Of a DNA stretch of 64,000 nucleotides, positions 2,663 to 20,514 are shown piece after piece; the stretch's first letter is position 1; the number at the start of each line of letters is the position of its first letter. The stretch is from an uncultured Methylophaga sp. (GTDB lineage Bacteria; Pseudomonadota; Gammaproteobacteria; GCF-002020875). The notes under the pieces were generated by a model, which saw nothing but the letters and a program-made list of their open reading frames with translations, had not been told where the DNA came from and made no database searches. The stretch spans positions 1-64,000 of the forward strand of contig CALEHW010000003.1 in assembly GCA_937877715.1 (NCBI GenBank), written 5' to 3'. A program made the translations under genes and the position numbers.

Positions 2663-3976
2663 ATGATACGAAAAGCACTTCTGCTCTTTTTGACGGGCAT
2701 TCTCTCTGCACCACCTATTATGGCAGCAGACACTACCGACAGTTCATTCCTGCTGACAAAAGTCGGGGAGCATCCTGATGTCGTCGAAAAAAAGAATCAG
2801 GCGCGTCTCAAGGGGCTTCGTATCCGGGAGATGGTTGCGGAGGATGGGCTGCAGATAAATCTCTCTACCAAAAGCAAGTTGTCAATTATTGGTGAATATG
2901 GTGATAACGCGCAGCGTATTACCGACAGAGACCGCTCATATATTGATGGGGTGGTGACGGCCCAGAAGGTGCTGTATGACTTCGGCAGGTCTGAGTTTGA
3001 TATCAGCTCTGAAAAGAGAAGAGAGAAGGCTGCGCAGCTGGAATATATCGATGTTTATGAGCAGACAATGCGATCTCTGCTCGCACTCTCCATTGATGTG
3101 GCACGGCTAGAGAGGCAGATAACCTCTCTGGACCGTACTATTGAGATTACATCAAAGTCAATTGAGGAGCTTGAGCTCCGTTTTTCCAGCGGGGTAGGGA
3201 CAGTTGTTGATGTCAGAAGAGCACAACTGCTATCGCTTGATCTGGAGACAGATCGGAAGTCTGCGTACCGTGAACATACTCTTAAACTCAAGGCGTTAAA
3301 TGAAGAATTTAATCTGTCTTCTGAAGAGATAAAATTGGTTTTTGGTGCTGTTCAGGGGCTGGTTGTAGAGGAAGATGAGATTGCCGCATCCCTGTTGAAT
3401 GGTCATGAGGTTGGGTCTGAACGCTCACTGGATCGGATCAATTATGAGAAGAGTGCCCTGCGCTCACAGATCAAGAGTCTGCGGGCTGCGGAGCAACCAC
3501 AGCTCTCCGGTGTATTAACTGGTATGGTCTATGATGTTACTCGTGGTGTTGATGAGTATGAGCTCTATGGAGGGGTTAACCTCAGTATGCCGCTGTTTGA
3601 TAGCGGGTTGAGTAGTAGCAAGAAACGGAGCCTGCTACACCAGATACAATTGCAGGATGATGCAGTAGTAATGGTAAAGAATCAGAAGCGGATGGATGCA
3701 ATTGACCTGGCCAAGCGTTACCAGCAACTCTCTCTGCAGACCCGCTCCTCGCGGGAGAGAGTAATAAATCTGCAGGAGAGGTTATCGCAGGTTGCTCAGA
3801 AGATTGCCATGACTGGAGAGGGGCTGCTGTCAAAACTGCAGACAGCGCTGGAGCTGGCTGAGGCCGAGCGTTCAATCTCCATGCACCCATATCTGATGCA
3901 CTCAATAAATATAGATTATCTTGCACTCAATGAGCAGTTGTTAGGTAAGATGTCTGTGATCCCGCTTACCCAATAA
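2663..3976 (+). CDS. TolC-like outer-membrane efflux protein of the type I secretion system
   Basis: 437 residues with an N-terminal signal peptide (Lys-Leu-rich start, cleavage probably after the AMAAD-like stretch near residue 22). The rest is long amphipathic helices typical of the outer-membrane efflux (OEP/TolC) family, with paired repeats near residues 90-200 and 280-420. It would trimerise into the outer-membrane channel and periplasmic tunnel through which the adhesins leave the cell. It lies 52 bp after the upstream adhesin gene and 10 bp before the ABC transporter gene, so the three export genes look like one operon. The ribosome binding site is weak; the start was chosen from the signal peptide. 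The family call is firm, and the substrate assignment rests on neighbours. Confidence 0.88.
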   Translation: MIRKALLLFLTGILSAPPIMAADTTDSSFLLTKVGEHPDVVEKKNQARLKGLRIREMVAEDGLQINLSTKSKLSIIGEYGDNAQRITDRDRSYIDGVVTAQKVLYDFGRSEFDISSEKRREKAAQLEYIDVYEQTMRSLLALSIDVARLERQITSLDRTIEITSKSIEELELRFSSGVGTVVDVRRAQLLSLDLETDRKSAYREHTLKLKALNEEFNLSSEEIKLVFGAVQGLVVEEDEIAASLLNGHEVGSERSLDRINYEKSALRSQIKSLRAAEQPQLSGVLTGMVYDVTRGVDEYELYGGVNLSMPLFDSGLSSSKKRSLLHQIQLQDDAVVMVKNQKRMDAIDLAKRYQQLSLQTRSSRERVINLQERLSQVAQKIAMTGEGLLSKLQTALELAEAERSISMHPYLMHSINIDYLALNEQLLGKMSVIPLTQ

Positions 3977-3986
3977 GAATAAAAAA

Positions 3987-5738
3987 ATGAGTTCAGCTCA
4001 ACATAAACAGCTCTATGTGGAGCACTGGTTTTTTGGCCCGCTCCTAAGAAATAAAAAACTCTATTTCGAGGTGATGTTGGCCTCGGTCTTCATTAACCTA
4101 TTTGCTCTGGCCAGCGCCTTCTACATCATGGTGGTCTATGATCGTGTCATTCCAAATAATGCAGTTGAATCACTGACAGCACTGACGGTAGGGGTGCTGC
4201 TTATTGTGCTGTTCGACTTTAGCATGAAGGTGCTGCGTGGCCTCTATACTGACAAGGCGAGTACGCTTATTGATATGGAGGTTTCCGAGGACCTCTTCGA
4301 GCGTATCTCCCGCAATGAACAGTTGATGAACCAGCAGACCGGAGCAACGGCATCGGTAGTCAAGGATTTCGACAGTCTCAAGGAATTTATCGCCTCCGCC
4401 TCATTTGTAGCCTTTGTGGACCTTCCATTTATTATTCTATTCCTGTTTGTTTTATATGGGATAGGAGGGCCAATTGCAGCAGTACCGGCAATCATTGTAT
4501 TGGTTGTGATTACCATCGGGCTGTTGATCCAGCCTGTTATTCGCAGACTGACCCATAATGCCGCCCAGGATGGGCAGAGCAAACATAGTGTTATTGTCGA
4601 GGTGCTCTCGGGAATGGAGACTCTGAAGACCCTGAGGGGGATTGGAATCCTTCGTGAGCGCTGGATGGATAGTGTGGGACGCCAGGGAATTGCATCTATC
4701 AAGTCCAAATTCTGGTCTCAGCTCACCACCAACTTTACCCAGTCCGGGCAGCAACTATCGCAGGTTGGAATTATTGTGTACGGCGTATTTCTCATTGCAG
4801 ATGGTGATCTAACGATGGGTTCGCTGATTGCGTGTGTGATTCTCTCTGGCCGCACCCTGGCACCGCTGGGCATGGTGAGTAACCTGTTGGGGCGCTTCAA
4901 TCAGGTGCTGACTGCCTACAACAATTTTGGGCAGTTAATGCAGCAGCCAGTCAAGGAGATGGGGCGTACCCATCAGGTGCGTAGAGAGGGTATCGATGGG
5001 TCAATCACCCTGACCAATGTATCCCTGACTTATCCTCAGCAGAAGGAGGCAACTATCAAGCAGATCAACCTCAATGTTGCAGTTGGTGAGAAGGTTGCAA
5101 TCGTGGGAAAGATCGGCTCTGGCAAGACCACATTGCTACGGTTGATTGCGGGGTTATATGACCCCACCGAGGGCTCTATAAAGATTGATCAGTCAGATGT
5201 CTCCCATATGCATCCCAATGACCTGCGTCGCCATATTGGCGTGGTCATGCAGACACCATTACTCTTCTCAGGCACCCTCAAGGAGAACCTGATGATGGGT
5301 AACCCGGAGGCAACAGATGATGATCTGATGAGAGCATCGAAGATTGCCGGAGTTGACGAGATTGCATCCAATCTGCCGGATGGCTACGAGACAATGTTGG
5401 CTGAAAGAGGGCAACAGCTCTCCGGCGGCCAGCGACAGGCCATCTGTATCGCCCGCGCCTTTATGGGTGACCCCAGGATTATCATCATGGATGAGCCCTC
5501 CAGTGCGATGGATACCGGCAGTGAGCAAAAATTGTTGCTCGATCTCAAGGATCGCCTCAAGGACAAAACCCTGATTTTGATTACCCATCGTGGCACCCTG
5601 CTCAGTCTGGTGGATCGAGTGGTTGTGTTTGATAGCGGACGAATCCTTGCGGATGGCCCCAAGGAGAAGGTGCTGCAGGCGATTTCCCAACATAATCAGA
5701 AACAGCAGGGCCAAACAAAGGGGCAGGAGGGGAGTTAG
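3987..5738 (+). CDS. Type I secretion ABC transporter (HlyB/PrtD family)
   Basis: 583 residues, an inner-membrane exporter half-transporter that powers one-step secretion. Residues about 20-310 form the six-helix transmembrane domain. The nucleotide-binding domain follows, with Walker A GKIGSGKTT near residue 375, signature LSGGQRQ near 478, Walker B IIIMDEPS near 498 and the H-loop in ITHRG near 533. The protein starts almost at the first membrane helix and lacks the N-terminal C39-like domain of LapB- and HlyB-type transporters, so it resembles the shorter PrtD/LipB type. It would dimerise and work with the HlyD-like protein encoded immediately downstream and the TolC-like protein upstream. 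The stop codon abuts the next ATG (TAGATG), suggesting translational coupling. Confidence 0.92.
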   Translation: MSSAQHKQLYVEHWFFGPLLRNKKLYFEVMLASVFINLFALASAFYIMVVYDRVIPNNAVESLTALTVGVLLIVLFDFSMKVLRGLYTDKASTLIDMEVSEDLFERISRNEQLMNQQTGATASVVKDFDSLKEFIASASFVAFVDLPFIILFLFVLYGIGGPIAAVPAIIVLVVITIGLLIQPVIRRLTHNAAQDGQSKHSVIVEVLSGMETLKTLRGIGILRERWMDSVGRQGIASIKSKFWSQLTTNFTQSGQQLSQVGIIVYGVFLIADGDLTMGSLIACVILSGRTLAPLGMVSNLLGRFNQVLTAYNNFGQLMQQPVKEMGRTHQVRREGIDGSITLTNVSLTYPQQKEATIKQINLNVAVGEKVAIVGKIGSGKTTLLRLIAGLYDPTEGSIKIDQSDVSHMHPNDLRRHIGVVMQTPLLFSGTLKENLMMGNPEATDDDLMRASKIAGVDEIASNLPDGYETMLAERGQQLSGGQRQAICIARAFMGDPRIIIMDEPSSAMDTGSEQKLLLDLKDRLKDKTLILITHRGTLLSLVDRVVVFDSGRILADGPKEKVLQAISQHNQKQQGQTKGQEGS

Positions 5739-6827
5739 ATGGAGTCTGTTTCCGACATCAAAAACCTCTTCGATCTGGAGAAGTTTCAGCAATTCATCTC
5801 GACACTGGGATCTGACCAGATAGTTGTTGGCTCAGCTGCAGCAATCACCATCAGTGTATTGATCCTCCTGGTACTGACCATAAAGATCATCAGGAAGGTG
5901 CGGGGAACAGCAGATGATGAGAGGACAGACCACTCACTTCTTCATAGCTCTCTACAGAAAAGATCCTTCCACAACCTGCTCTTCTACACCATCGCACTCT
6001 TCTTTATCGTCTTCATAACCTGGGCAAAATATGCCGAGATCGATCAGGTGGTTCGGGCTGAAGCGGTGGTAGAGCCAGTGGGCAAGGTACAGCAGCTGCA
6101 GTCTCGATATCCGGGCTCAGTTACAATATCTGATATATCGGTAGGGGATATCGTAAACCGTGGTGATGTTCTCATCCGTCTGGACACCCAAGAGGTGCAG
6201 AATTCTTACAATGCCGCTGATGAGAAAATTGCCTTGTTGCAGCAGGAAAGAGAGATCTATCAACCACTGGTTGATGCCGGGATCGAGCCCATGATTCGGC
6301 TGGTACAGATCAGGCAACGACTGCTGGAGACAACAGAACAGAAGCAGCAGGCATCACTCCAGCTCCAGTTTAGTGACATCAAGTCCCCAATCTCCGGTGT
6401 CCTGACAGCAGTCAATATCTCCGGCCCAGGAGCTGTGATTCGTGCAGGAGATGTGTTGGCAGAGGTGGTTCCACAGGAGGAGTACTTCCTGATCAAGGCC
6501 AAGGTTCTGCCCAAGGATATCAGTAAGGTTTCAATTGGGCAGAAGAGTAGGGTCTCCTTTACCGCCTATGATTTCTCCCGTTACGGAGTGATGGAGGCCG
6601 AGGTCACCAAGATCGCCCACAACACCACCAAGACCCAGCAGGGAGAGATCTACTACGATACCTGGGTCAAAACCGGTAGCTCCACATTCTCAAAATCGGA
6701 CATTAATCCCAATATCCTTCCCGGCATGATTGCCCAAGTAGATCTTCTTGGCGAGAAGAGAACCATCCTTGAATACATCATGAGTCCACTTAACCGCACT
6801 GCCTCCAGGGCATTGACGGAACAATAG
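5739..6827 (+). CDS. HlyD-family membrane fusion protein of the type I secretion system
   Basis: 362 residues, the periplasmic adaptor linking the ABC exporter to the TolC-like channel. A lipoyl-type half motif lies near residues 108-148, a short helical hairpin near 150-208, the second lipoyl half near 210-248, and a beta-barrel domain continues to the C terminus, with the family-typical GMIAQVDLL stretch near 328. Two features are unusual. There are two hydrophobic N-terminal segments (about 25-50 and 83-103) where one is normal. The helical hairpin is much shorter than in LapC or HlyD, which run to about 450-480 residues. Its ATG touches the upstream stop. The family is clear, but the altered geometry suggests a specialised channel fit or a differently long TolC partner. 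Confidence 0.88.
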   Translation: MESVSDIKNLFDLEKFQQFISTLGSDQIVVGSAAAITISVLILLVLTIKIIRKVRGTADDERTDHSLLHSSLQKRSFHNLLFYTIALFFIVFITWAKYAEIDQVVRAEAVVEPVGKVQQLQSRYPGSVTISDISVGDIVNRGDVLIRLDTQEVQNSYNAADEKIALLQQEREIYQPLVDAGIEPMIRLVQIRQRLLETTEQKQQASLQLQFSDIKSPISGVLTAVNISGPGAVIRAGDVLAEVVPQEEYFLIKAKVLPKDISKVSIGQKSRVSFTAYDFSRYGVMEAEVTKIAHNTTKTQQGEIYYDTWVKTGSSTFSKSDINPNILPGMIAQVDLLGEKRTILEYIMSPLNRTASRALTEQ

Positions 6828-7119: not shown

Positions 7120-10100
7120 ATGTCAGTTCAAAATGCCCCGGTTGCCAACGACGACAATTATAACATTGATGAGGGTTCCAGTATCCAGATGACCAATCTG
7201 GCCAACGACTCCGATATAGAGGATGGCAGCCTGAACCCATCAAATATCACTATCGTCTCCCCATTCAGCAATGGTAGCGTGCAATCAGGTCTCTATACAC
7301 CTAATGCAGGATTTACTGGTGTCGACACCATGACATATAAGGTTGCTGACAGTGACGGTGAGTTTTCAAATGTTGCGACTGTGACTGTAAATGTGAACCA
7401 ATTTGATGCTGAACAGGATTATGCACGTGGTGCTGTAGAGGAACTCTTTGCTCGGGCAGGGATGAGTGCCATTGTTGATCTCTCGGTGACCGTTAGTTTT
7501 ACTGAGGAGACAGATTCTGACCACTTTGTTATTACAGCGGATGGTTATACCTACAATAGCCAAAATTTTGCCGGCAACAATATAATCAATATTGATCTCG
7601 TATTTACTGGAGATACTCTTACAAGCTATTCTGGATTGCCTGCAGAAGTCTCAGAGCTTACCCAGACGGCTATTGAGGAGTGGTATGAGTTCTCTGATCA
7701 TGATAATAATGACGAATATGCCCAGGCAGCCGTTGAGAACCTCTTTACTCAGGCAGATATCCATGCCTGGAGCAATTTGACTACATCGATGGAGGGGATT
7801 CCAAATGGGGATCGCATTACCATTCAAGCCGATTCTATTGGGCTGAATGGTGATTCGGTGATAGCCATCAATATTGTTCTTGAGTTTGAAAACAATTCTG
7901 TTACAAGCAAGGTGGGTATCCCTGCTGAATTAACTAATATCTTCAATGATGCCTATCTGAATACATGGTATGAGTATTCTGGGCCAGAACAACAGCGTCA
8001 GGAGGATCAGCAAGATTCTGGTTATTATGAGGGTGATGCAGGCCATACTGAAACCTATACCAATGTCTGGACATGGACTGAATTTCAATGGGTTGATGGT
8101 GGAGAGGTAGAAATTCTCTGGACGGTTGTGGATAAGGAGGAGAACGGTGTCTGGAGCTCTACCGAAACCAGCGGTAATGGCGATGTTCGTGTCCATAGCT
8201 CTAGCTGGGATGATACCACTCAAATAAGCACTTGGTCTGAGACATTCCATAATTCCGATAGCAGCATTAGCTACACAAGGACTGAAACTCAAAATCCTGA
8301 TGGTACATCCAGTGCTCGTTTGACTGGCAGCATTGACCACCTGTTGTGGATGCCGTTGGATGGTATATACAGCAGTGTGGATGTTACCGAGACGCGTGAT
8401 GCCTTCTGGAACACCATCAATGTCACTGGAACCGTTACTAATCCGAATAGTGAAGTATTAGCTGTAACCTACAGCAGTGATGGCGAGATTCTTGTCGGTG
8501 GAGAATCACTCTATGTAGCAGGAGGATTTGATGACCACTTCTCTGGAACAAATGAGTGGGAGTGGACGGATGACTGGAGTGGCATCACCTGGCGAGTTGT
8601 CGAGGGGGATGATGGAAGTGGTAACTGGGCATTTACCGAGACCGCCTACCGTGATGATGATGGTGATGGAACTGCTGAGACAGCCACAGGTGAAATGCGC
8701 ACCAACTACTCAACCTGGGATGATGCAACCAGCACCAATACCTGGTCTGAAACCTATACAGATGGCGATGATATCAGTTTTACTAGAACGGAGACCTACA
8801 ATAACGACGGCACCTCCAGCGAGACCATAACTGGCTCAAATGATCATATCGCCTGGTACTACCTGGGTGACGTCTACACCGATATCAGTGTGACTGTTAC
8901 ACGTGACGCCAACTGGAATACAGCCAGCATCAGCGGTACGGTAACGAAAGATAGTGCCACTGTTAATGTGACCTACAGTGATGGACAGATCATGATTGAT
9001 GGAAACTCCATTGATGATCTAGATGATGGAATGACTCAATTCCAGGACGGCGGCAGCAGTGAGTGGACCTGGACCGACTGGGAGGGCGTAACCTGGACAG
9101 TTACTGATACACAAAATGGCGACACCTGGACCTCAACTGAAATAGGTTCTAATGGGGATGCTCGCACACACACTAATACCTGGGATCCAACCACCAATAC
9201 ATCCACAATGACTGAGCACTTCGTCAGTGGAGATAGCGATGTAGATTACACTAGAACAGAGGCCTGGAATGATGATGGTACATCTACAGAGACCGTAACA
9301 GGCACCACTGATCAGATTGGGTGGATGTGGCTGGATGATGTCTACACCAATGTGGATGTAACTATTGACAGAGGCTGGGACTCTTTCTCTATTACAGGTA
9401 GTGCAACCAATTCGGGCGGGCAGCCTGTCACTATTGGTCTTGATCCAGCCACCGATCAGTTGACCATTGATGATGGTAGTGGTGCTGCTGTTGTTGATTT
9501 CAGTAGCCGTGAAGATATCAACTTTAATGAGCAGGAGAGTTGGGAGTCCAGCTGGGAGTGGACCGAGGTTACTGGAGGCGGAGAGGTGATCTGGGTGGTC
9601 ACTGATAGCCAGAAGGGAGAGACATGGAAATCAACTGAGATCGCCTATACGGAAGATGGGTTTGGCAACAGAACTGAAACAGGTGACGAAAGAAGTCACT
9701 CCTCGGTATGGAATGAGCGTACTCAGACCAGTATCTGGACAGACTCTGAGAAGAGTGCCGATGGCAACCGTGACTTTACCCGTGTGGAGACGATGCGTGC
9801 AGATGGTTCATCCACTGAGAAGATTAGCGGTAAGGTGGACAAATTTGGTGGCTATGATGATGTGGATGTCACCATTGAGCGTGACTCCAGCTGGAATATT
9901 ACAGCTGTTTCTGGTGAGGCAATAGTTCATGAAGGTGATGACCCACTGATTGTTGGGTTTGATGGAACCAGCATTACTGTTGGTGGTGTCGCGGTCGGTA
10001 GCTATGATGCAAGTGGCGCCCATGGCAACCAGGATAGCTGGGAGAGCACCTGGACTTGGACTGACTGGGAGGGTATTACCTGGACAGTAACTGACAAGCA

Positions 10101-13100
10101 GGAGGGTGACACCTGGACATCAACCGAGGTTGGTTCCAATGGTGATGTTCGTGTCCACAAAAATGCGTGGAGTGGTACAACAGAGACATGGAGTGAGAGC
10201 TTTACCAGTGCCGACGGCAATATTGATGTGACTCGTGTAGAGGTTAGGAGTAGCGATGGAACCTCCAGCGAGACCATTACCGGCAAGGATGATGGCTTTG
10301 GCTGGTGGGACTTTGAAACTTCTTATACCAATCTGGATATCACCATTGAGCGTGATGTCAACTGGGAGATTACTTCACTGACGGGTAGTGCAGATGGTGT
10401 TACCTCATTTGGGTTCAGTGATGGACATCTGACTATTGATGGTCAGGAGTTTAATGGTGGGGCATTTGATGATCGCTCCCATATGGTACAGGAGGATTGG
10501 GTCAATACCTGGGAGTGGACTGATGGAGAGGGGGTCACCTGGACGGTAACAGATAAACAGGATGGAGATACCTGGACCTCAATGGAAGAGGGCTCTAATG
10601 GTGATGTGCGCATCAATACATCTACTTGGGATGAAGCGCTGAATAACTATGTCAATATCACCTCCTTTAAGAGTGGGTCTTCAAATATTGACTACTCCAT
10701 TAAAGAGGTCTGGAACGATGACGGTAGTTCATCAGAGACTATTAAGGGTGCGACTGATCAGATTAGCTGGTTCAATCTTGGAGAGACCTACTCTGATGTT
10801 GATCTCACTATTGTGCGTGATGCAAACTGGAACACCATTAGTGTTACTGGTACAGGAACAGATGAGGGAGGAACACCTGCTGATTTTGATTGGTCTGTAG
10901 AGGGTCAATTGACCTTCAATGGTGTTGCTGTTGATTCTGGTGCTGGCGGGGGTGGAGCAGTAGCAGCGGATCAGATTTGGGAGACTACCTGGGAGTGGGT
11001 TGACTGGGAGGGAGTAACCTGGACAGTCACCGATAAACAGGAGGGAGATACCTGGAGCACTACCGAGGTAGGAGATAATGGAGACACCCGTGCTAGTGAA
11101 TCTAAGTGGGATCCAATCAAACAAATTTCCATCTGGACTGAGACTTTTGATAGCGGTTCGACCGATGTCGACTTCAAGCGAGTTGAGGTCTTCAATCCTA
11201 ACGGCACCTCTTCTGAAACCATTACCGGTACAATTGATCATGTTGCCTGGTGGCCACTGCATCAGATATACACAGATGTAGAGGTGGTAATTGAGCGTGA
11301 TGCCAACTGGAATGTTTATAGTGTTAATGGAACTGGTACCGTGGATGGCGAGACTGCCAGCTTCGGATGGTCATTAGATGATGAGCAGCTGACATTCAAT
11401 GGGGATGCTATTGAAGACCCTAGTGCCCACCATATGGATACCAACCAGTATTGGGAGAACAGCTATACCTGGACTGATGAAGGTCGAGGTATTACATGGG
11501 AGGTCGAAGAGGTTCAGGATGGGGAAACCTGGACGAGAACAGAGACGGCCTACACTGATGAAACCCTGACGACGACTACAGGAGAGATTCGCACAGAGAG
11601 CAATAGCTGGAATCATGAGACCGGCACCTCGACCTGGAGTCGAACAGAGACCGACCCCGATCGTGGCATTGACTTCACAATAACCGAGACCGGCACCTGG
11701 AACGAGGTGAGCCAGTCCAATGATTGGTCAGAGACAGTCACAGGTAGAACGGACCACATCCACTGGGTCGCTCTGGGTGAGGTGCAAGAGGTCAATATGA
11801 CCATCACCTATGATGATTATCACAATATCACGGATATCTCCGGTACCACGTCAGAAGGCGCTTGGGCTGCAGGAACCTGGACTCCAAATGGCACTACCCA
11901 TACCGTCACCTATGACAATGTGAATGGACAGATCCTTGTTGATGGCAACCCGTTTGTCATGACGTGGACCGATTGGGACGGCACCGTTTGGGCGGTTAAC
12001 GAGTCTCAGGATGGGGAGACACATACTAGAACCGAGACGGCATACACTGACGACACATTAGCAACTGAAACAGGTGCAAGCCGTGTCGAGACCCATACCT
12101 GGGATAACAATACTCAGACCAATACCATGACCGAGGTGGTGACCGATAATGCCAGTTCTGTCGTGATTAATGTAACCAAGGTCGAAACGCATCAGCCGGG
12201 TGAAGGCTCTAGTACCACAATCACCGGTTCTACCAATCATATCGAGTGGATGAATCTTGGTGAAACTTACACTAATCTGAATGTTACCGTTGAGCGAGAC
12301 GAGAACTGGAATATCAAGAATGTTTTCGGCACAGGAAATAATGAGAGTGGAGATATCAAGAACTTCGGGTTCAGTGGTGCTGACAATCAGTTGATGATTG
12401 GTGATGATGACGCTTCACTCTCTCTGGTTGCTGATGATATAGGCCAGAGTTGGAGCAATACCTGGACATGGGATGACCACGAAGGTGTAACCTGGACCGT
12501 AACCGACGAGCAGAAGGGGGACACCTGGATCTCAACCGAGGCTGGTAGCAATGGTGCGACTCGTATCTTTGAGTCCACATGGGATTCGTCTACGCAGACC
12601 AATACCTGGTCAGAGCATTTCACTAGCGCAGGTGGAGATATTAACTTCACCAGAACGGAGGTCTATGATGAGTCTACTCAGACCTCAACTATGACCACTA
12701 CTGGTACTTCTGACCATATTGGCTGGATGTACATGGGTGAGGTCTACACTGATATCAATGTTACTGAGACACGTGATTCAAGCTGGAATACAGGCTCTGT
12801 TACTGGTGTGGCGACTAACGCTTCCGGCGAGGTGGTTACCATTGGTTGGGAGGATGGTGAGCTTATTGTTGATGGTGATTCCCTAACAACAACTGGCCAG
12901 GGAGATTTCTCCAAATCAGCTGATAACTTTGAAAATGAGTGGACCTACTATGACGACAATGGCGTTGAGTGGACTGTTACCGAGTCTCAGCATGGCGATG
13001 CATGGGTCTCTGAGGAGAGAAGTGAGGATGGAGAATTCCGTCTCAATAAATCATTCTGGAATGAGGGAGATCAGGAGTCAAAGAATGTCACCAAATACAA

Positions 13101-16100
13101 GAGTGCTGATGGAGAGATCAAGTACAAGATGGTCGAGGTTCACAAGGCCGATGGTAAGACTGTTATCAAATACATGGGTGATAGTGACCATCTCGCTTGG
13201 GATTATCTTGGAGATGTTTATACCGAAATAGATGTAAAGATTGTTCGTGATGCTAACTGGAACATTTTAAGAGTCAGTGGAGTGGATACACCTCCAGGTA
13301 TTCTACCTGGAGATGAAGGTTTTATTGTTGCAACTGCGACAGACCCAGATGGTAATACCATCAATATTACCAAGGGTGGTCCTGGCCAGATTCTTGTGGA
13401 TGGTGTTGATATTAACCATCTCGGTGATGACTTCTTCCAGGGAATGAATACCGACCACTTTGATGATATTGAGAGCGGTTCATGGACGTTTGACTACACC
13501 AACGAGCAAGGCCAACTCATTAATGTGGTGGAAGAGGGTATTGCAACCGATATCGTAACTATTCAGACAGATGAACTGGATATCTCATTGGTGTTCGATG
13601 TTGACCAGAATTTCCTGATATCGGCAACCGGGTTGCCATCAGGTGTCACAGCCCTGACAGAGGGCGAATTAGAGAGTTGGTACTCCTTAGCCGTTGTAGA
13701 TCCAATGGATCAGCAGGGAGATATGAGCACTGAAGAGGAGATTACCTTTGTGACAACTAAGGTCACAGAGTACCTAATTACTAACAGTGTGGCGATAACT
13801 AATCTTCAGGTTGGTTTTGATATCGCAGATACCTGGTCTACAACTGAGACCAATACAGTGACAGATGAGATCTTTGTTCGCTCTCGTACAGAACAGCTCG
13901 ATAAGGAGATTGAGAGGGAAGAGAGATATGACAACCAGTCCAACTATGATTCAGGAAATGCATCCTGGTGGTATCAGGGCGAGCGCTCCTTTGAGGATAG
14001 TGAGTATGGCTTCAATATGGTGGAACAGAATACAAGTTCCACCGGTGAGGATCTGCGGGTTGTTATAACCACTCACCCCGATGGCGCCGTCACCATGAAT
14101 GCCACTGGAACGGCCTATCTTGAACAGGTTGATATGCTGGTTACCAATGTCAATGTCTCATCACAGATGGATGATGGCTGGAAGTTTGTTGACTTCCAGG
14201 GTAAGGGAACCATCGATAGCGGTGAATACAATGGAAAGGATGTTGTTATTACCTCTGATGGAACAGGCCCTTGGGGAGATCCTCTGATACATCTGACTGT
14301 CGATAATGGTGATGGCACATTTACGGATGTTCTTGGTTATGATGCTTCTGATGCTAAACAGGCTCACTTTGCTGACTCAGGCAACCCACTGGATCACCAT
14401 GTGCTGGTTGAAGGTGAGGGATATGTTACCTCTAGAAGTGGGTGGGTCTGGGAAGAGACCAGTTATACCAATAATAATGCGACAACCACCACTTTTGAGG
14501 GTGGGCGTGATAATAAGCCAAATGCAGCCATCACAGTAGTAGAGACACGTGCCTATCTGGATGGAAATACTGATGGTGAGATAGAGAGCATTGTCCAACA
14601 TGTCACCAATACCGGAGGTATGGACTACACCGCAACCTTTACGCTGAACGATAGATATGACGTTGAGATTCACTTCGAGGGTAGCAAGTACTTCCGTGGA
14701 GATCTCTACAATGATGTTGATGTCATTAAGGAGATTACCCCAAATGGGGATGTCCGAGTCGAGGGTAGTGCCAGGAAACTGGATGGAACCGAGGTCGAAT
14801 TCTTCAAGGGGCATGGTGATAGCAAGCTTGAGATCGTCAGTTTGGATCGTGATGGCAATATTCGTAAACTGACAGAAGAGGAAGAAGGTGGTGAGATCGA
14901 TCTTCCTGTTAATGAGATCTTCCAGTGGTCGTTTACCGATCATGGGGGGGTTGAATGGACCGTTATCGAGAAGTTTGATGGCAATATTGGTAGCCGTACT
15001 GAGACCAATACGGCTGGTGATCAGCGCACCTTTGAAGATACCTGGAATAGTGACGGTAGCTTTAGCTCTGTTATGACTGAGGCGCTTGTGGGGGAGGATG
15101 TCTTTACCGAGACACGCTCTTCAACCCCTAACTATGACACTGGCACAAGCACCTATAGTGAGGTAATGGCTGTTGTTACTACCCGCGCTGGTGCGGAGGT
15201 TGAGAACTATACTGAGACTATCACCTTTAATGCGGATTACTCATCCACTTATGTGGTTGCAGGTACCATTGACTTCATGGGAGGCCTCTATTCAACGGGT
15301 GGGGGCAGTGTGACATCCCAACAGGATACTAACTGGGTCACCACCTCGGTGTCAGGTACCGTGACCAGAGTAAGTGATAGTAAGGAATTCGCTGTATCCA
15401 TGGATGGTACCCATCCGTGGGGTGAGCCAAAATTGGTTCTGACCCACGGTGTTGTGGGTGACGGTGATTATGAACAGATTACTGATGACCGTACGGTGAT
15501 TGATAACAAGGATGCGGACAATTCTGATCCAACAGCAGTGAATGATGCCGCCTCTACTAGTGAGAACCAGTCTGTAATTATTGATGTGCTAGTTAATGAT
15601 TCAGATCCTGATGAAGGTGATGAAGATGTCCTTTCCATCAAGTCTGTAGGTGAGGCCTCTAACGGTGAGGTATTCCTCGCAAATGGTGAGGTAGTCTATA
15701 CACCGGACTATGGTTACTCTGGTAGCGATAGCTTTAGCTACACAATAACCGATGGTCGTGGTGGTATTGATACGGGTGAGGCAACAATTGATGTGACAGG
15801 TGTGAATGCTGCGCCGGTCGCTGTGGATGATGCGTATACAGTCCTACAGGGTAGTGCTTCAGTTGCATTGGATCTTCTTGCTAATGATAGTGATGAGGAG
15901 GGTGATGATCTGTCAATTACTGCGATTACCCCAATACCAACAACGGCTGGTGGCTGGGTTAATATTTTTGGTGATATCGTCACATACGAACTTCCTTCAG
16001 ATACGTTTGTTGGGGAGGATAGTTTTACCTACTACATTACGGATGGAGGCACTTATGCCCCAGTTGATAAGCCAAATGCAGAGGTTACCATCACTGTAGA

Positions 16101-19100
16101 GTCATTGAATAATGCTCCAGTTGCAGTTGCTGATGCTGTCACCCTGGATGAGGACGAGGAGGCAGTACAGATTCGTGTTCTCACGAACGATACTGATGCG
16201 GATAGTGATACCCTCTCCATTGACTCCTTTACCAACCCTGATCATGGTACGGTCAGGCTACTTGGTGGGCATCTCTTCTATACACCGGATTCTGACTATG
16301 TGGGGGCTGATACTTTTACATACACAGTTGTAGATCCATCAGGTGCAAGTGCGACCGAGACAGTGACCTTAACTGTGAGTGAAGTCAATGATGGGCCGGT
16401 TACCATTACCGATATCCTGAATGTAGAGGAAGGCTCTGAGGGTGTAACTGTAAATGTGCTTGCCAATGATTATGACAGGGAAGATCACTCCTTTACCCTG
16501 ACATCTGTAAGTGATGCCTCTCATGGCACTGTGGTGATGGGTTCTGGCGGAATGGTTACCTATACACCTGGAACTGAGAGTGGCTCCAACTATACTGGAG
16601 CGGATTCATTCACCTATGTGACAACAGACAGTGAAGGGCTGCAATCTACGGGAACCGTTTCGATCACTGTAAGTGAGCTGAATGATGCGCCAGTTGCCAA
16701 GGCAGATACCAAGAGTATTGCTGAGGATTCCAGTAACAATAGGATTGCAGTGCTTGATAATGACTCCGACCCTGAAAATGATACGCTGGAGCTAGATTCT
16801 GTAGGTGCCCCAGATCACGGTACAGTTGAGATGTCTGGTAATAGTGTTCTCTATACGCCTGAGGCTAACTATAGTGGCACCGATACCTTTACCTATAAGG
16901 TGAGCGATGGCAATGGCGGCACATCAACTGGAACCGCTACTGTTACAGTTAACGGCTCAAATGATGCGCCAACTGCGGTTGATGATATTCTGGGTACAGT
17001 ATCCTCTGCCAAGCCTGTCAAGCTGGATCTGCTATCCAATGATTATGACGTGGATAGTGGTGACTCTATATCTGTCGTCTCTGTTGGAACAGCTACTAAC
17101 GGCAACGTTACGCTTAGTGGCGGGTCGGTACGTTATGTGGCAGATCGTGGTTCCTCAGGCAAGACGGACAGTTTTGATTATACGATTGAGGATGAGAGTG
17201 GGGAGCAGTCTACAGCCACTGCAAGCTTTACACTTTCGACTAATACTAATCCAATTGCAACCAATGACAAGGTAACAGTGTTGGAAGATGCGGATACTGC
17301 CGAAATCGATGTTCTCGATAATGATACGGATGCAGACTCTGATAAGGTGCAGGTGCTGAAGGTAGGTACCGATCCAAATCACGGAACTACTACCGTCACT
17401 AATGGCAAGCTATTCTATCAACCAGATGCCAATTACAATGGTTCCGACACCTTCACATATATTGTTAAGGATGGGAATGGAGGCCGCGATGAGGCAACCG
17501 TGACGTTAACAGTCACTGCAGTCAATGATGCACCGACAGCAATCAATGATACAGCCTCGGTTGAGGTCGACTCCTCTGCTACTACAATCTCTGTTCTTGG
17601 AAATGATAGTGATATTGATGGGGATAGCCTGGAGATTTCCAGTGTAACTGATCCGCTTCATGGAACCGCTGAAGTTCTGGAGGATAGTAGTGGTGTTACC
17701 TATGTACCGGAAGCTGGTTATACGGGTGCAGACAGCTTTACCTACAAGGTCTCGGATGGAACAATTACATCAGTCGCAACAGTCAATGTAACGGTGACAG
17801 CTGGAAATACAGTTCCAACATCGACCAATGATACAGATACAGTTATTGAGGATTCCAGTAGCAATCAGATTGATGTCCTTACCAATGACAGTGACGCAGA
17901 TGGTGATGATCTGAGTGTGGTTTCGGTCACCCAGGGTGAGCATGGTTCTGTCCAACTGACTAGTGGTAAGGTCTTCTATACACCGGATGATAACTATACA
18001 GGGAGCGACAACTTTAGCTATACCGTGAAAGACGGGAATGGTGGGGTTACCTCTGGCAAGGTTACAATTTCGGTCACAGCTGTCGAGGATGCCCCAACAG
18101 CTGTAAACGATGAGCTTGATTCAATGGAAGCGGGTACGGCTAAGATTAAGGTGGATCTGATCTCCAATGACAGTGATCCAGATGGTGATGATATTTCCAT
18201 CACCGATGTTAGTAGTGCCAAGTATGGAACAACTAGCTTTGTCAATGGGCAGGTCTACTATCAGCCCGGCTCAACAGCCGGTGTGAGTGACTCTTTCAGT
18301 TACACTCTGAAGGATAGCAATGATAATGAAACCACCGGTTATGTCCGTGTTGATATTACTGAGTCTAACAGTGCCCCAACAGGTAGCGTGAAGATTTCTG
18401 GTGGGGCACAGCCCTATCAGACCCTTACTGTCTCCAATACTCTGGCGGACGATGATGGGCTGGGTGACTTTAGCTATCAGTGGTACAAGGATGGCACAGC
18501 AATGCAGGGTGAGACAGGCACGACCTATCAGGTTACGCTTGAGGATGTCGGCTCTGTATTCAGTGTTGCGGTAAGTTATACGGACGACAACGGTGCGGCA
18601 GAGTCTGTCTCTAGTGATGCAACTAATACAGTGACTGTTCTGGATACGCCATTCTCATTTGTTGCAGGATCGGTAGATGTGGATGGTATCCTGACGCTGA
18701 CCCTGAAGGTAGATATTGATGCGATCAGTAGCAGAAGTGATATCACTAGTATCACTGCGGCTGATCTGGCGCTCAATATCGACTGGGATGACTTTGCAGC
18801 GCTTGATGGATCCAGTGATGCGAAGTTCTCAACATCTACCATTGGTAGTAATTTGATTGTACTCACATCTTCTTCTACATCTGATAGTAATACCTTCGAT
18901 GAGATTACCCTGGCATCAATTCGTACTAGTGATCCACTGTTGACGATGGTTGATTCTGATGCAACCAACGATGCGTCTAGCTCAATTGGTACAACAGCAG
19001 ATCTCATAACGTTGCAGTTGAAGCCAATGGATCCATCCGAGAAGATAGCTATCACCCTAAGTGGTACAGTGGTTGCGAATCAGGGGCAGGTTGAGTTTGC

Positions 19101-20514
19101 CCAGTACGATGCAACCACCAACAATATCACTGGTGTAGCAACCAACAGCTCACCTACAGGAGCAGTGACGGTCTCTGGTACGGTTGCTGTTGATGAGGTG
19201 CTGACTGCAAGCCATACTATTACTGATGCAGATGGAATGGGTGTGGTCTCCTATCAGTGGTATCGAGATGGAGATGCCATTAGCGGTGCTGCCGATGAGA
19301 CCTATACGATAGTAACAGCAGATATAAACAAATCACTCACTGTCAAAGCCAGCTATACGGATGGTAGTAGCACTGCAGAGACGGTTTCAAGTGGAGGGCA
19401 CACTGTTACCCAGTCAACTGAGAACAAGCCATTCATGTTTACATCGGAACTGGTGACTGCTGCCGAGGCGTCTACCGCACTCTATGGTGCAGACTACTCT
19501 GAGGATTCAGCAGAAACCATCCTTAAACTAACGCTGAATGGTGATATCACTCGGTTTGATACAGCTAATGCCGCTTCCTACACCTCTATTGCAGGCGCTG
19601 AAATTGATTTCACTATAGATTGGAATCAGTTTGAGGCGATTGACTACACCGTTGCCAGTGGATATAGCGACGCGACCTTTGAGATCAACAAGGAGTACAC
19701 CGGGTCGCTATTCATGGGTGCGGTGACCAATGATAATAATGAGTTTAGCAAGGTGGTGCTCTCTTCCCTGAATACATCAAAAAAACCGGTGCTGACGCTG
19801 GTAGATAGTGTCGAGACAACAGGTAGAGGATATACCGATCAGCCAACTAGTGATGATTTTGTAACGATCTACTTAAATCCTGTCGATTCTTATCGTGATG
19901 TAGAGATCACATTCGATGGTGCAATCTCTGTAAATCAGGGTGAGGATACCTTTAGTCAGCTGAGTCATTCACTCGAGGTTCAGGTAAGTACCTATGATGC
20001 GACCATTGAGACACCAGCACTGCTAACCACTAATGGTGGCAAGTTGCTTGATAATCTCTCGGTTAACCCCTGGTATAACGGTGATGATACAGGAGAATCT
20101 CTGGCGGTCGTCTCTGGTGAGATATCGATTGAAAATACAACAGTATTCGATGAGGTCAAGCTCTCAGTGGTTGACGCATACGACTCCAGCATTAACATCT
20201 CTGATGCAATTGATGTATTGAGACATATCGTTAACCTTGAGGCTATTACAAATGGGTCTGCCAATTACCATGCAGCAGATGTCAATAATGACGGCAATAT
20301 CAATATCACAGATGCAATTGCAATCTTGAGAGATATTGTTAATTTGGAGACAATTGATACCTTTGATCTGATCGATGATCAGGGAGATCGTGTTACTCAG
20401 TTGGATGCTGGTTCGTCCGGAACTCCACCAGAGTGGACAATTGTTGCTAACGGTGATGTCAATCTCTCTGGTGGCTTTGAGAATGACTATGTGGTTGCGC
20501 AAGAAATTGTCTAA
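7120..20514 (+). CDS. Giant 4464-residue repeat adhesin with C-terminal dockerin, probable T1SS substrate
   Basis: No N-terminal signal peptide, so export by the adjacent type I system is inferred. Modules in order: a Big_9 cadherin-like domain (residues 1-93); two related units of about 95 residues (95-288) ending in a GLPAE...W pattern; about 11 Trp-rich repeats of 154-170 residues (about 313-2104); degenerate related sequence with another GLP...W unit near 2143-2195 (about 2105-2800); ten Big_9 repeats of about 95 residues (about 2801-3750); an Ig-like domain (about 3751-3840); a cohesin-like domain (about 3845-4007); a second Ig-like (4009-4097); a second cohesin-like (about 4106-4297); and a type I dockerin (4352-4411). 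The composition is Asp/Thr/Ser-rich, with almost no Cys. I see no RTX nonapeptides. The likely role is a surface adhesin or biofilm matrix protein, perhaps calcium-dependent. The AAAGGA ribosome site supports this start. Confidence 0.88.
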   Translation: MSVQNAPVANDDNYNIDEGSSIQMTNLANDSDIEDGSLNPSNITIVSPFSNGSVQSGLYTPNAGFTGVDTMTYKVADSDGEFSNVATVTVNVNQFDAEQDYARGAVEELFARAGMSAIVDLSVTVSFTEETDSDHFVITADGYTYNSQNFAGNNIINIDLVFTGDTLTSYSGLPAEVSELTQTAIEEWYEFSDHDNNDEYAQAAVENLFTQADIHAWSNLTTSMEGIPNGDRITIQADSIGLNGDSVIAINIVLEFENNSVTSKVGIPAELTNIFNDAYLNTWYEYSGPEQQRQEDQQDSGYYEGDAGHTETYTNVWTWTEFQWVDGGEVEILWTVVDKEENGVWSSTETSGNGDVRVHSSSWDDTTQISTWSETFHNSDSSISYTRTETQNPDGTSSARLTGSIDHLLWMPLDGIYSSVDVTETRDAFWNTINVTGTVTNPNSEVLAVTYSSDGEILVGGESLYVAGGFDDHFSGTNEWEWTDDWSGITWRVVEGDDGSGNWAFTETAYRDDDGDGTAETATGEMRTNYSTWDDATSTNTWSETYTDGDDISFTRTETYNNDGTSSETITGSNDHIAWYYLGDVYTDISVTVTRDANWNTASISGTVTKDSATVNVTYSDGQIMIDGNSIDDLDDGMTQFQDGGSSEWTWTDWEGVTWTVTDTQNGDTWTSTEIGSNGDARTHTNTWDPTTNTSTMTEHFVSGDSDVDYTRTEAWNDDGTSTETVTGTTDQIGWMWLDDVYTNVDVTIDRGWDSFSITGSATNSGGQPVTIGLDPATDQLTIDDGSGAAVVDFSSREDINFNEQESWESSWEWTEVTGGGEVIWVVTDSQKGETWKSTEIAYTEDGFGNRTETGDERSHSSVWNERTQTSIWTDSEKSADGNRDFTRVETMRADGSSTEKISGKVDKFGGYDDVDVTIERDSSWNITAVSGEAIVHEGDDPLIVGFDGTSITVGGVAVGSYDASGAHGNQDSWESTWTWTDWEGITWTVTDKQEGDTWTSTEVGSNGDVRVHKNAWSGTTETWSESFTSADGNIDVTRVEVRSSDGTSSETITGKDDGFGWWDFETSYTNLDITIERDVNWEITSLTGSADGVTSFGFSDGHLTIDGQEFNGGAFDDRSHMVQEDWVNTWEWTDGEGVTWTVTDKQDGDTWTSMEEGSNGDVRINTSTWDEALNNYVNITSFKSGSSNIDYSIKEVWNDDGSSSETIKGATDQISWFNLGETYSDVDLTIVRDANWNTISVTGTGTDEGGTPADFDWSVEGQLTFNGVAVDSGAGGGGAVAADQIWETTWEWVDWEGVTWTVTDKQEGDTWSTTEVGDNGDTRASESKWDPIKQISIWTETFDSGSTDVDFKRVEVFNPNGTSSETITGTIDHVAWWPLHQIYTDVEVVIERDANWNVYSVNGTGTVDGETASFGWSLDDEQLTFNGDAIEDPSAHHMDTNQYWENSYTWTDEGRGITWEVEEVQDGETWTRTETAYTDETLTTTTGEIRTESNSWNHETGTSTWSRTETDPDRGIDFTITETGTWNEVSQSNDWSETVTGRTDHIHWVALGEVQEVNMTITYDDYHNITDISGTTSEGAWAAGTWTPNGTTHTVTYDNVNGQILVDGNPFVMTWTDWDGTVWAVNESQDGETHTRTETAYTDDTLATETGASRVETHTWDNNTQTNTMTEVVTDNASSVVINVTKVETHQPGEGSSTTITGSTNHIEWMNLGETYTNLNVTVERDENWNIKNVFGTGNNESGDIKNFGFSGADNQLMIGDDDASLSLVADDIGQSWSNTWTWDDHEGVTWTVTDEQKGDTWISTEAGSNGATRIFESTWDSSTQTNTWSEHFTSAGGDINFTRTEVYDESTQTSTMTTTGTSDHIGWMYMGEVYTDINVTETRDSSWNTGSVTGVATNASGEVVTIGWEDGELIVDGDSLTTTGQGDFSKSADNFENEWTYYDDNGVEWTVTESQHGDAWVSEERSEDGEFRLNKSFWNEGDQESKNVTKYKSADGEIKYKMVEVHKADGKTVIKYMGDSDHLAWDYLGDVYTEIDVKIVRDANWNILRVSGVDTPPGILPGDEGFIVATATDPDGNTINITKGGPGQILVDGVDINHLGDDFFQGMNTDHFDDIESGSWTFDYTNEQGQLINVVEEGIATDIVTIQTDELDISLVFDVDQNFLISATGLPSGVTALTEGELESWYSLAVVDPMDQQGDMSTEEEITFVTTKVTEYLITNSVAITNLQVGFDIADTWSTTETNTVTDEIFVRSRTEQLDKEIEREERYDNQSNYDSGNASWWYQGERSFEDSEYGFNMVEQNTSSTGEDLRVVITTHPDGAVTMNATGTAYLEQVDMLVTNVNVSSQMDDGWKFVDFQGKGTIDSGEYNGKDVVITSDGTGPWGDPLIHLTVDNGDGTFTDVLGYDASDAKQAHFADSGNPLDHHVLVEGEGYVTSRSGWVWEETSYTNNNATTTTFEGGRDNKPNAAITVVETRAYLDGNTDGEIESIVQHVTNTGGMDYTATFTLNDRYDVEIHFEGSKYFRGDLYNDVDVIKEITPNGDVRVEGSARKLDGTEVEFFKGHGDSKLEIVSLDRDGNIRKLTEEEEGGEIDLPVNEIFQWSFTDHGGVEWTVIEKFDGNIGSRTETNTAGDQRTFEDTWNSDGSFSSVMTEALVGEDVFTETRSSTPNYDTGTSTYSEVMAVVTTRAGAEVENYTETITFNADYSSTYVVAGTIDFMGGLYSTGGGSVTSQQDTNWVTTSVSGTVTRVSDSKEFAVSMDGTHPWGEPKLVLTHGVVGDGDYEQITDDRTVIDNKDADNSDPTAVNDAASTSENQSVIIDVLVNDSDPDEGDEDVLSIKSVGEASNGEVFLANGEVVYTPDYGYSGSDSFSYTITDGRGGIDTGEATIDVTGVNAAPVAVDDAYTVLQGSASVALDLLANDSDEEGDDLSITAITPIPTTAGGWVNIFGDIVTYELPSDTFVGEDSFTYYITDGGTYAPVDKPNAEVTITVESLNNAPVAVADAVTLDEDEEAVQIRVLTNDTDADSDTLSIDSFTNPDHGTVRLLGGHLFYTPDSDYVGADTFTYTVVDPSGASATETVTLTVSEVNDGPVTITDILNVEEGSEGVTVNVLANDYDREDHSFTLTSVSDASHGTVVMGSGGMVTYTPGTESGSNYTGADSFTYVTTDSEGLQSTGTVSITVSELNDAPVAKADTKSIAEDSSNNRIAVLDNDSDPENDTLELDSVGAPDHGTVEMSGNSVLYTPEANYSGTDTFTYKVSDGNGGTSTGTATVTVNGSNDAPTAVDDILGTVSSAKPVKLDLLSNDYDVDSGDSISVVSVGTATNGNVTLSGGSVRYVADRGSSGKTDSFDYTIEDESGEQSTATASFTLSTNTNPIATNDKVTVLEDADTAEIDVLDNDTDADSDKVQVLKVGTDPNHGTTTVTNGKLFYQPDANYNGSDTFTYIVKDGNGGRDEATVTLTVTAVNDAPTAINDTASVEVDSSATTISVLGNDSDIDGDSLEISSVTDPLHGTAEVLEDSSGVTYVPEAGYTGADSFTYKVSDGTITSVATVNVTVTAGNTVPTSTNDTDTVIEDSSSNQIDVLTNDSDADGDDLSVVSVTQGEHGSVQLTSGKVFYTPDDNYTGSDNFSYTVKDGNGGVTSGKVTISVTAVEDAPTAVNDELDSMEAGTAKIKVDLISNDSDPDGDDISITDVSSAKYGTTSFVNGQVYYQPGSTAGVSDSFSYTLKDSNDNETTGYVRVDITESNSAPTGSVKISGGAQPYQTLTVSNTLADDDGLGDFSYQWYKDGTAMQGETGTTYQVTLEDVGSVFSVAVSYTDDNGAAESVSSDATNTVTVLDTPFSFVAGSVDVDGILTLTLKVDIDAISSRSDITSITAADLALNIDWDDFAALDGSSDAKFSTSTIGSNLIVLTSSSTSDSNTFDEITLASIRTSDPLLTMVDSDATNDASSSIGTTADLITLQLKPMDPSEKIAITLSGTVVANQGQVEFAQYDATTNNITGVATNSSPTGAVTVSGTVAVDEVLTASHTITDADGMGVVSYQWYRDGDAISGAADETYTIVTADINKSLTVKASYTDGSSTAETVSSGGHTVTQSTENKPFMFTSELVTAAEASTALYGADYSEDSAETILKLTLNGDITRFDTANAASYTSIAGAEIDFTIDWNQFEAIDYTVASGYSDATFEINKEYTGSLFMGAVTNDNNEFSKVVLSSLNTSKKPVLTLVDSVETTGRGYTDQPTSDDFVTIYLNPVDSYRDVEITFDGAISVNQGEDTFSQLSHSLEVQVSTYDATIETPALLTTNGGKLLDNLSVNPWYNGDDTGESLAVVSGEISIENTTVFDEVKLSVVDAYDSSINISDAIDVLRHIVNLEAITNGSANYHAADVNNDGNINITDAIAILRDIVNLETIDTFDLIDDQGDRVTQLDAGSSGTPPEWTIVANGDVNLSGGFENDYVVAQEIV
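7402..7983 (+). repeat. Two diverged protein repeats of about 95 residues with a GLPAE...EW/TW end
   Basis: Both units open with a helix-like YAxxAVExLF stretch, continue with a beta-rich stretch (DxxxITADG/QADS, xxINIxLxF) and close with GLPAE or GIPAE followed by W-Y-E-[FY]-S. A third, partial copy is at about 13546-13705 (GLPSG...ESWYS), beyond the Trp-rich array. I do not recognise this unit as a named family. Confidence 0.6.
8059..13430 (+). repeat. Tandem array of about 11 Trp-rich repeats (462-508 bp each)
   Basis: Successive units start near 8059, 8550, 9056, 9538, 10036, 10498, 10975, 11452, 11950, 12451 and 12931. The unit core is W-x-W-T-D-[WG]-E-G-[VI]-T-W-T-V-T-D-x-Q-x-G-D-T-W, then a GSNGDxR segment, SxTWD, WSE, F-T-R-x-E, DGTSSETITG, DHIxW, Y-T-D-[VI]-x-V-T-x-x-R-D-x-N-W-N and a variable hydrophobic end with a DGxxL/I strand. 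Copies are diverged at DNA level, so this is an old array. More degenerate relatives follow at about 13480 and 14920. The beta-rich pattern with regularly placed Trp suggests a carbohydrate- or surface-binding fold, but no named family is recognised. Confidence 0.85.
15520..18369 (+). repeat. Ten tandem Big_9/cadherin-like repeats (about 285 bp each)
   Basis: Units begin near 15520, 15808, 16108, 16387, 16681, 16963, 17245, 17527, 17809 and 18088. Each starts N-x-x-P-x-A-x-x-D and continues with a [IV]-x-V-L-x-N-D-[ST]-D-x-[DE] calcium-site-like motif, H/N-G-x-V, Y-T/Q-P-x-x-x-Y-x-G-x-D-x-F-x-Y and D-G-x-G-G. This is the usual cadherin-like stalk repeat of bacterial surface adhesins, which extends the protein away from the cell and is often rigidified by calcium. 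Confidence 0.85.
20173..20352 (+). other. Dockerin type I domain coding segment at the end of the giant adhesin
   Basis: Two EF-hand-like segments, each followed by a helix: D-x-Y-D-x-x-I-x-I-S-D-A-I-D-V-L-R-H-I, then D-V-N-N-D-G-N-I-N-I-T-D-A-I-A-I-L-R-D-I. The second loop has all the expected Asp/Asn/Gly calcium positions; the first is less regular. Dockerins bind cohesins, and cohesin-like domains are present in this protein and in the protein at 1-2610. A tail of about 50 residues follows and contains a further GDVNLSG half-loop. Confidence 0.8.

What the first reader, a model, noticed from the sequence alone, without database searches (positions are those of the whole stretch)
8059..13430. 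Array of about 11 Trp-rich repeats of about 160 residues in a giant secreted protein
The sequence shows tandem, diverged copies with a fixed W-x-W-T-D...T-W-T-V-T-D core, DGTSSETITG and R-D-x-N-W-N. The unit does not match the VCBS, cadherin, Big, RTX or Ig repeats known to me. Regular Trp spacing in a beta-rich unit suggests carbohydrate or surface binding; this last step is inference. The array may be an undescribed domain family.
Basis: partly seen in the sequence, partly recalled or inferred. Interest (0 to 1): 0.72.

Follow-up and report, generated by a model that had tools for sequence, protein, structure and literature searches.

The report
New repeat domain in giant secreted protein
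A giant bacterial protein, apparently exported by the type I secretion genes beside it, carries eleven intact copies and one worn copy of a roughly 160-residue all-beta domain that matches no family or solved structure I could search, so it looks like an undescribed building block of bacterial surface proteins whose binding partner is unknown.

Summary
Window 8059-13431 encodes eleven tandem units of 153-169 aa (mean pairwise identity 39%; each unit found by a profile of the other ten at 95-174 bits) inside one 4464-aa ORF (7120-20514 +). I also found a degenerate 12th unit at 14911-15423. The ORF follows a complete type I secretion set (outer-membrane protein, ABC transporter, HlyD) and carries Big_9/tandem-95 repeats and a C-terminal dockerin-like module. 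No unit matches Pfam, NCBIfam, PHROGs or PDB sequences credibly. AlphaFold2 gives a confident all-beta meander (pLDDT 90.6, 10-11 strands), no PDB or viral fold match reaches E 0.001, and the units look like beads on flexible linkers. No relative turned up in several hundred Pseudomonadota genomes (profile) or 84,980 genomes (peptide patterns). Most Trp columns share one face with the hydrophobic and invariant charged residues; the other face is Thr-rich. Best reading: an undescribed beta domain family used as a repeated module in a secreted adhesin- or matrix-type protein. UniProt and AlphaFold DB could not be searched.

The parts
7120..20514 (+). giant ORF, 4464 aa, ATG with AAGG just upstream
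   Evidence: no Cys, no GGxGxD
8059..8544 (+). unit 1
8545..9051 (+). unit 2 (long beta3-beta4 loop with DDDGDG)
9052..9540 (+). unit 3
9541..10038 (+). unit 4
10039..10497 (+). unit 5
10498..10977 (+). unit 6
10978..11451 (+). unit 7 (structure predicted)
   Evidence: AlphaFold2 mean pLDDT 90.6, pTM 0.81
11452..11952 (+). unit 8
11953..12450 (+). unit 9
12451..12924 (+). unit 10
12925..13431 (+). unit 11
14911..15423 (+). unit 12, degenerate, separated from the array by about 500 aa
   Evidence: hhalign probability 97.2 against the 11-unit profile, shuffles at most 1.8
13828..14229 (+). possible further worn unit
   Evidence: E 0.96 in the genome search; 0 of 2000 shuffles score as high; tentative
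7165..7401 (+). N-terminal tandem-95/Big_9 domain
7405..7989 (+). two copies of a second unassigned domain of about 97 aa
   Evidence: self-profile match, no Pfam
15553..18381 (+). run of Big_9 / tandem-95 Ig-like repeats (stalk); 11 stretches in the protein including the N-terminal one
20044..20511 (+). C-terminal module of about 155 aa with dockerin-like repeat (20182-20325), shared with two other proteins of the genome
2663..3976 (+). outer membrane efflux protein (OEP) of the type I exporter
   Evidence: PF02321
3987..5738 (+). ABC transporter of the type I exporter, 583 aa, no C39 domain found
   Evidence: PF00005, PF00664
5739..6827 (+). HlyD-type membrane fusion protein
   Evidence: PF13437

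Best explanation
The array is a tandem expansion of a previously undescribed all-beta domain, about 145 residues of meander sheet plus a disordered linker of roughly 2-23 residues. It lies in a giant protein exported by the adjacent type I secretion system. The units fold independently and hang as beads on flexible linkers. Each unit has one Trp/hydrophobic face with an invariant Glu/Arg network, most likely the core or interior pocket of the fold, and a Thr/Ser-rich outer face. The array most likely serves as a multivalent extracellular adhesive or matrix module, with the Ig-like tandem-95 run as stalk. Shown by computation: the repeat, the missing family match, the predicted fold, the gene neighbourhood. 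Inferred: export, surface role, adhesion.
For: Repeat statistics. No credible Pfam, NCBIfam or PHROGs family and no PDB sequence. Confident AlphaFold2 meander from the 11 units alone. The two-unit model keeps both domains but has linker pLDDT below 50 and pTM 0.50. No PDB or BFVD fold match at E<=0.001. The best charge-complementary column pair of 367 tested is 55-68 (8 units acid-base, 3 units neither; p 0.006), the neighbours expected from the predicted beta5-beta6 hairpin; a second, 28-40, lies across beta3-beta4. Complete type I set directly upstream on the same strand. ORF starts with an Ig-like domain and no evident signal peptide. All three proteins of the genome with the shared C-terminal module end in an acidic residue plus hydrophobics (EIV, DLL, DLV), as PrtD-type substrates do (general knowledge).
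Against: No homologue outside this genome was found, so conservation of function across species cannot be tested. The charge-pair p value is uncorrected for 367 pairs from 11 sequences. The hydrophobic alternation is not significant on its own (443 of 5000 shuffles reach it). Adhesion is by analogy with other giant type I substrates. Neither end has an identified anchor: there is no N-terminal retention module, and no Cohesin-family match in the genome.
Confidence: 0.6

Rival explanations
1. Each unit is a lectin-like or carbohydrate-binding domain whose exposed Trp stack on glycans; eleven copies give avidity.
For: High Trp content (5.7%); binding domains are common in type I adhesins (literature such as PMC6650083, PMC10865825, abstracts seen); a very weak fold similarity of the two-unit model to the lectin FleA (E 0.0045, TM 0.17).
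Against: Most Trp columns lie on the conserved hydrophobic face and few on the Thr-rich face; no CBM or lectin family match; the FleA match has a TM-score that means nothing.
Confidence: 0.15
2. The unit is an up-and-down beta barrel of the calycin type (lipocalin, fatty-acid-binding) with an interior pocket, so the array is a multi-pocket small-ligand binder.
For: 10-11 consecutive antiparallel strands with aromatic plus conserved charged residues on one face; weak fold hits include fatty-acid-binding proteins, nitrobindin and oxysterol-binding domains.
Confidence: 0.15
3. The units are pure spacer or stalk modules, like the Ig-like repeats elsewhere in the protein, with no binding role.
For: Tandem array, divergent copies held by amino-acid constraint (pN/pS 0.60), disordered linkers, and a second known stalk type in the same protein.
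Against: A separate 11-unit array with invariant Glu/Arg positions beside an existing stalk suggests more than length; flexible linkers make a poor rigid stalk.
Confidence: 0.25

Closest known systems
Giant type I secreted adhesins (SiiE, BapA/LapA group, MpIBP)
   Same: Several-thousand-residue, Cys-free repetitive protein without evident signal peptide, next to its own exporter; Ig-like repeat run.
   Different: The array unit is not Ig-like; no RTX nonapeptides and no N-terminal retention module.
tandem-95 repeat proteins (NF012211, Pfam Big_9)
   Same: The giant protein itself carries eleven such stretches.
   Different: The Trp units are not matched by these models.
Single-layer or meander beta proteins (OspA, MORN) and up-and-down barrels (FABP, nitrobindin)
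   Same: Consecutive antiparallel strands; weak Foldseek similarity.
   Different: No hit at E<=0.001; TM-scores at or below 0.39; no sequence match.
Dockerin type I (PF00404)
   Same: The C-terminal repeat at 20182-20325 passes the family cut-off when searched apart.
   Different: Sits in a C-terminal module shared by three proteins of this genome; no Cohesin partner family found.

Membership tests
Type I secretion substrate | adjacent ABC transporter, membrane fusion and outer membrane genes | tested here: met
Type I secretion substrate | uncleaved C-terminal secretion signal | tested here: inconclusive
   C-terminal module shared with two other proteins and acid-plus-hydrophobic ends; export not measured
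RTX adhesin/toxin | GGxGxDxUx nonapeptide repeats | tested here: not met
   no GGxGxD in 4464 aa
LapA-type retained adhesin | N-terminal retention module with LapG site | tested here: not met
   an Ig-like domain begins at about aa 16 and no retention module or AAG site is seen
LapA-type retained adhesin | LapG/LapD genes in the genome | not tested
   not searched
VCBS / cadherin / Big_9 / Ig repeats | profile match of the units | tested here: not met
   all such matches lie outside 8059-13431 or are absent for single units
Any carbohydrate-binding module or lectin family | profile match | tested here: not met
Any carbohydrate-binding module or lectin family | glycan binding | not testable with these tools
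   needs protein
Calycin-type up-and-down barrel | closed 8-10 strand barrel with a fold match to members | tested here: inconclusive
   meander seen in the model, but no significant fold match; closure not visible
OspA/MORN single-layer sheet | fold or sequence match | tested here: not met
   TM-scores at or below 0.28 and no E<=0.001

The most novel reading that the evidence does not exclude
The unit is a new protein fold: an 11-strand beta meander with an aromatic and charged interior and a Thr-rich exterior, restricted to one lineage and expanded into a multivalent array with a specific ligand-binding pocket.
Probability: 0.25. Interest if true: 0.65.

Novelty: new variant of a known kind. 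Interest (0 to 1): 0.45.

Why it matters
Giant type I secreted proteins with repeat arrays are known, and their array units are mostly Ig-, cadherin- or RTX-like. A different all-beta unit with no detectable relative in the samples searched would add a domain family, possibly a new fold, and a way to study how lineage-specific adhesive modules arise. The unit is small, Cys-free and predicted with high confidence, so it should be easy to express and solve.

Tried and rejected
(1) Pfam, NCBIfam, PHROGs and PDB matches at loose thresholds: TcdA/TcdB pore, hemagglutinin HA1 and phrog_13666 hits are E>=0.05 and rejected as chance. (2) The only foreign hit of the profile, G567 (E 0.006), lies in a TolQ/ExbB-like reading frame (my reading of the sequence) and is taken as chance. 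(3) Peptide-pattern scans of genome and viral contigs gave pattern hits but no relative; plasmids and phages gave nothing. (4) Giant proteins of sister species were fetched; they carry tandem-95 domains but no unit. (5) A match to a 1058-aa protein on contig 66 is suggestive only (10.3 bits for the first piece; 3 of 1000 shuffles of the whole protein score as high; hhalign probability at most 10%). (6) Assembly artefact rejected: copies are near saturation at synonymous sites. (7) The hydrophobic-alternation test alone was not significant.

Full report
OBSERVATION. The finding lies in a single open reading frame of 4464 aa, window 7120-20514 on the + strand, preceded by an AAGG ribosome-binding-like sequence. 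Eleven units occupy aa 314-2104, window 8059-13431. They are 153-169 aa long with mean pairwise identity 39% (range 28-53%). In leave-one-out tests every unit scores 95-174 bits against the profile of the others, and shuffled sequence gives nothing. The invariant positions, in unit-7 numbering, are W15, V17, E30, G35, R38, W44, E70, G84 and G118. A further worn trace at 13828-14229 is tentative. Synonymous sites between units are near saturation (pS 0.71, pN/pS 0.60), so the duplications are old and amino-acid sequence is constrained.

SURROUNDINGS. Directly upstream on the same strand are an outer membrane efflux protein (2663-3976), a 583-aa ABC transporter (3987-5738) and a HlyD-type fusion protein (5739-6827), that is, a complete type I exporter. 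The giant protein has no Cys and no RTX nonapeptide. It begins with an Ig-like domain and then has two copies of a second unassigned domain of about 97 aa. After the array come about 500 aa with worn copies, unit 12, a run of tandem-95/Big_9 repeats, and a C-terminal module with a dockerin-like repeat that passes the Pfam cut-off when searched apart. The last 155 aa are 52-58% identical to the ends of two other proteins on contig 66 of the same genome and were not found in 368 other genomes of the class. All three end in an acidic residue plus hydrophobics, as known for PrtD-type substrates (general knowledge). Export by type I secretion is therefore likely but inferred.

RELATIVES. No unit matches Pfam, NCBIfam, PHROGs or PDB sequences credibly. 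Profile searches of 369 class genomes, 399 phylum genomes and 78 genomes of a second class, partly the same genomes, found the unit only in this genome. A 2674-aa query covering the array and its neighbours also found nothing else. Two peptide-pattern scans of 84,980 genomes and two of viral contigs found no relative; those scans need short exact peptides and can miss distant relatives. The five sister species held in the genus lack the unit, though they encode proteins with tandem-95 domains. Within the genome, a 1058-aa protein on contig 66 holds a possible distant relative (10.3 bits; 0 of 2000 shuffles reach the score of the isolated piece), which remains unproven. UniProt, metagenomes and AlphaFold DB could not be searched, so 'no relative' is limited to these samples.

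STRUCTURE. AlphaFold2 with the 11 units as alignment gives a confident model of unit 7: mean pLDDT 90.6, pTM 0.81, strands at 2-8, 14-22, 25-32, 37-45, 50-58, 65-72, 78-89, 92-107, 113-122, 125-132 and 137-140, no helix, and a disordered last 11 residues. A two-unit model keeps both domains, but the linker is below pLDDT 50 and pTM falls to 0.50, so no fixed mutual orientation is predicted. Foldseek found no match at E<=0.001 for the single unit in PDB or BFVD or for the pair in PDB; the best hits are meander barrels and OspA-like sheets with TM-scores at or below 0.39. Column analysis places W5, W7, W15, W26 and W53 on the face that also carries the other hydrophobics and E30 and E70, and the hairpin geometry puts R38 and W44 on the same face (the automatic call for that strand was a tie). 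The other face is about one third Thr; the face was chosen by hydrophobicity, so the Trp enrichment is partly built in. The strongest charge-complementary column pair of 367 is 55-68, the expected cross-strand neighbours of the beta5-beta6 hairpin (8 units acid-base, 3 units neither; p 0.006 uncorrected), and the next, 28-40, lies across beta3-beta4. This independently, if weakly, supports the predicted strand order.

MECHANISM. The best-supported picture is a secreted giant protein in which eleven autonomous beta domains hang on flexible linkers, beside an Ig-like stalk, as a multivalent adhesive or matrix module. Shown by computation: repeat, fold prediction, exporter genes. Inferred: export, location, adhesion. 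A spacer role and a small-ligand pocket are the main rivals. How the protein would be held on the cell is open: there is no retention module, and no Cohesin family match in the genome.

NOVELTY. The protein as a whole belongs to a known kind, giant type I secreted repeat proteins. The unit is, within all libraries available here, an undescribed domain family with a confidently predicted structure lacking a significant fold match.

Noticed in passing
window 7405-7989: Two copies of another unassigned domain of about 97 aa directly before the array, with a possible half copy at aa 2150-2190.
   Followed up: partly
L076 (G000 contig 66, 66256-68096): Two further proteins end in the same roughly 155-aa dockerin-like C-terminal module (52-58% identity), which was not seen in 368 other genomes of the class; possibly a lineage-specific export or docking tag.
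   Followed up: partly
L076, ORF from 7530 (1058 aa): Weak, unproven similarity to the array unit on both sides of a He_PIG Ig domain.
   Followed up: partly
window 1-2610: C-terminal part of a second giant protein with VCBS, cadherin and Big_9 repeats (E 3.7e-80 to PDB 6xi1), cut off by the contig start; its end resembles part of the C-terminal region of the array protein (32% identity).
   Followed up: partly
window 8545-9051: Unit 2 has a long beta3-beta4 loop with a Ca-site-like DDDGDG stretch; units 4, 8 and 9 have other long loops there.
   Followed up: no
L065 (G004 contig 13): A sister species has type I exporter-like genes beside a different giant protein with Gly/Pro-rich repeats, suggesting that substrates are swapped between species.
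   Followed up: no
window 32300-34219 and 26065-27033: ORFs of 639 and 322 aa without any Pfam family.
   Followed up: no
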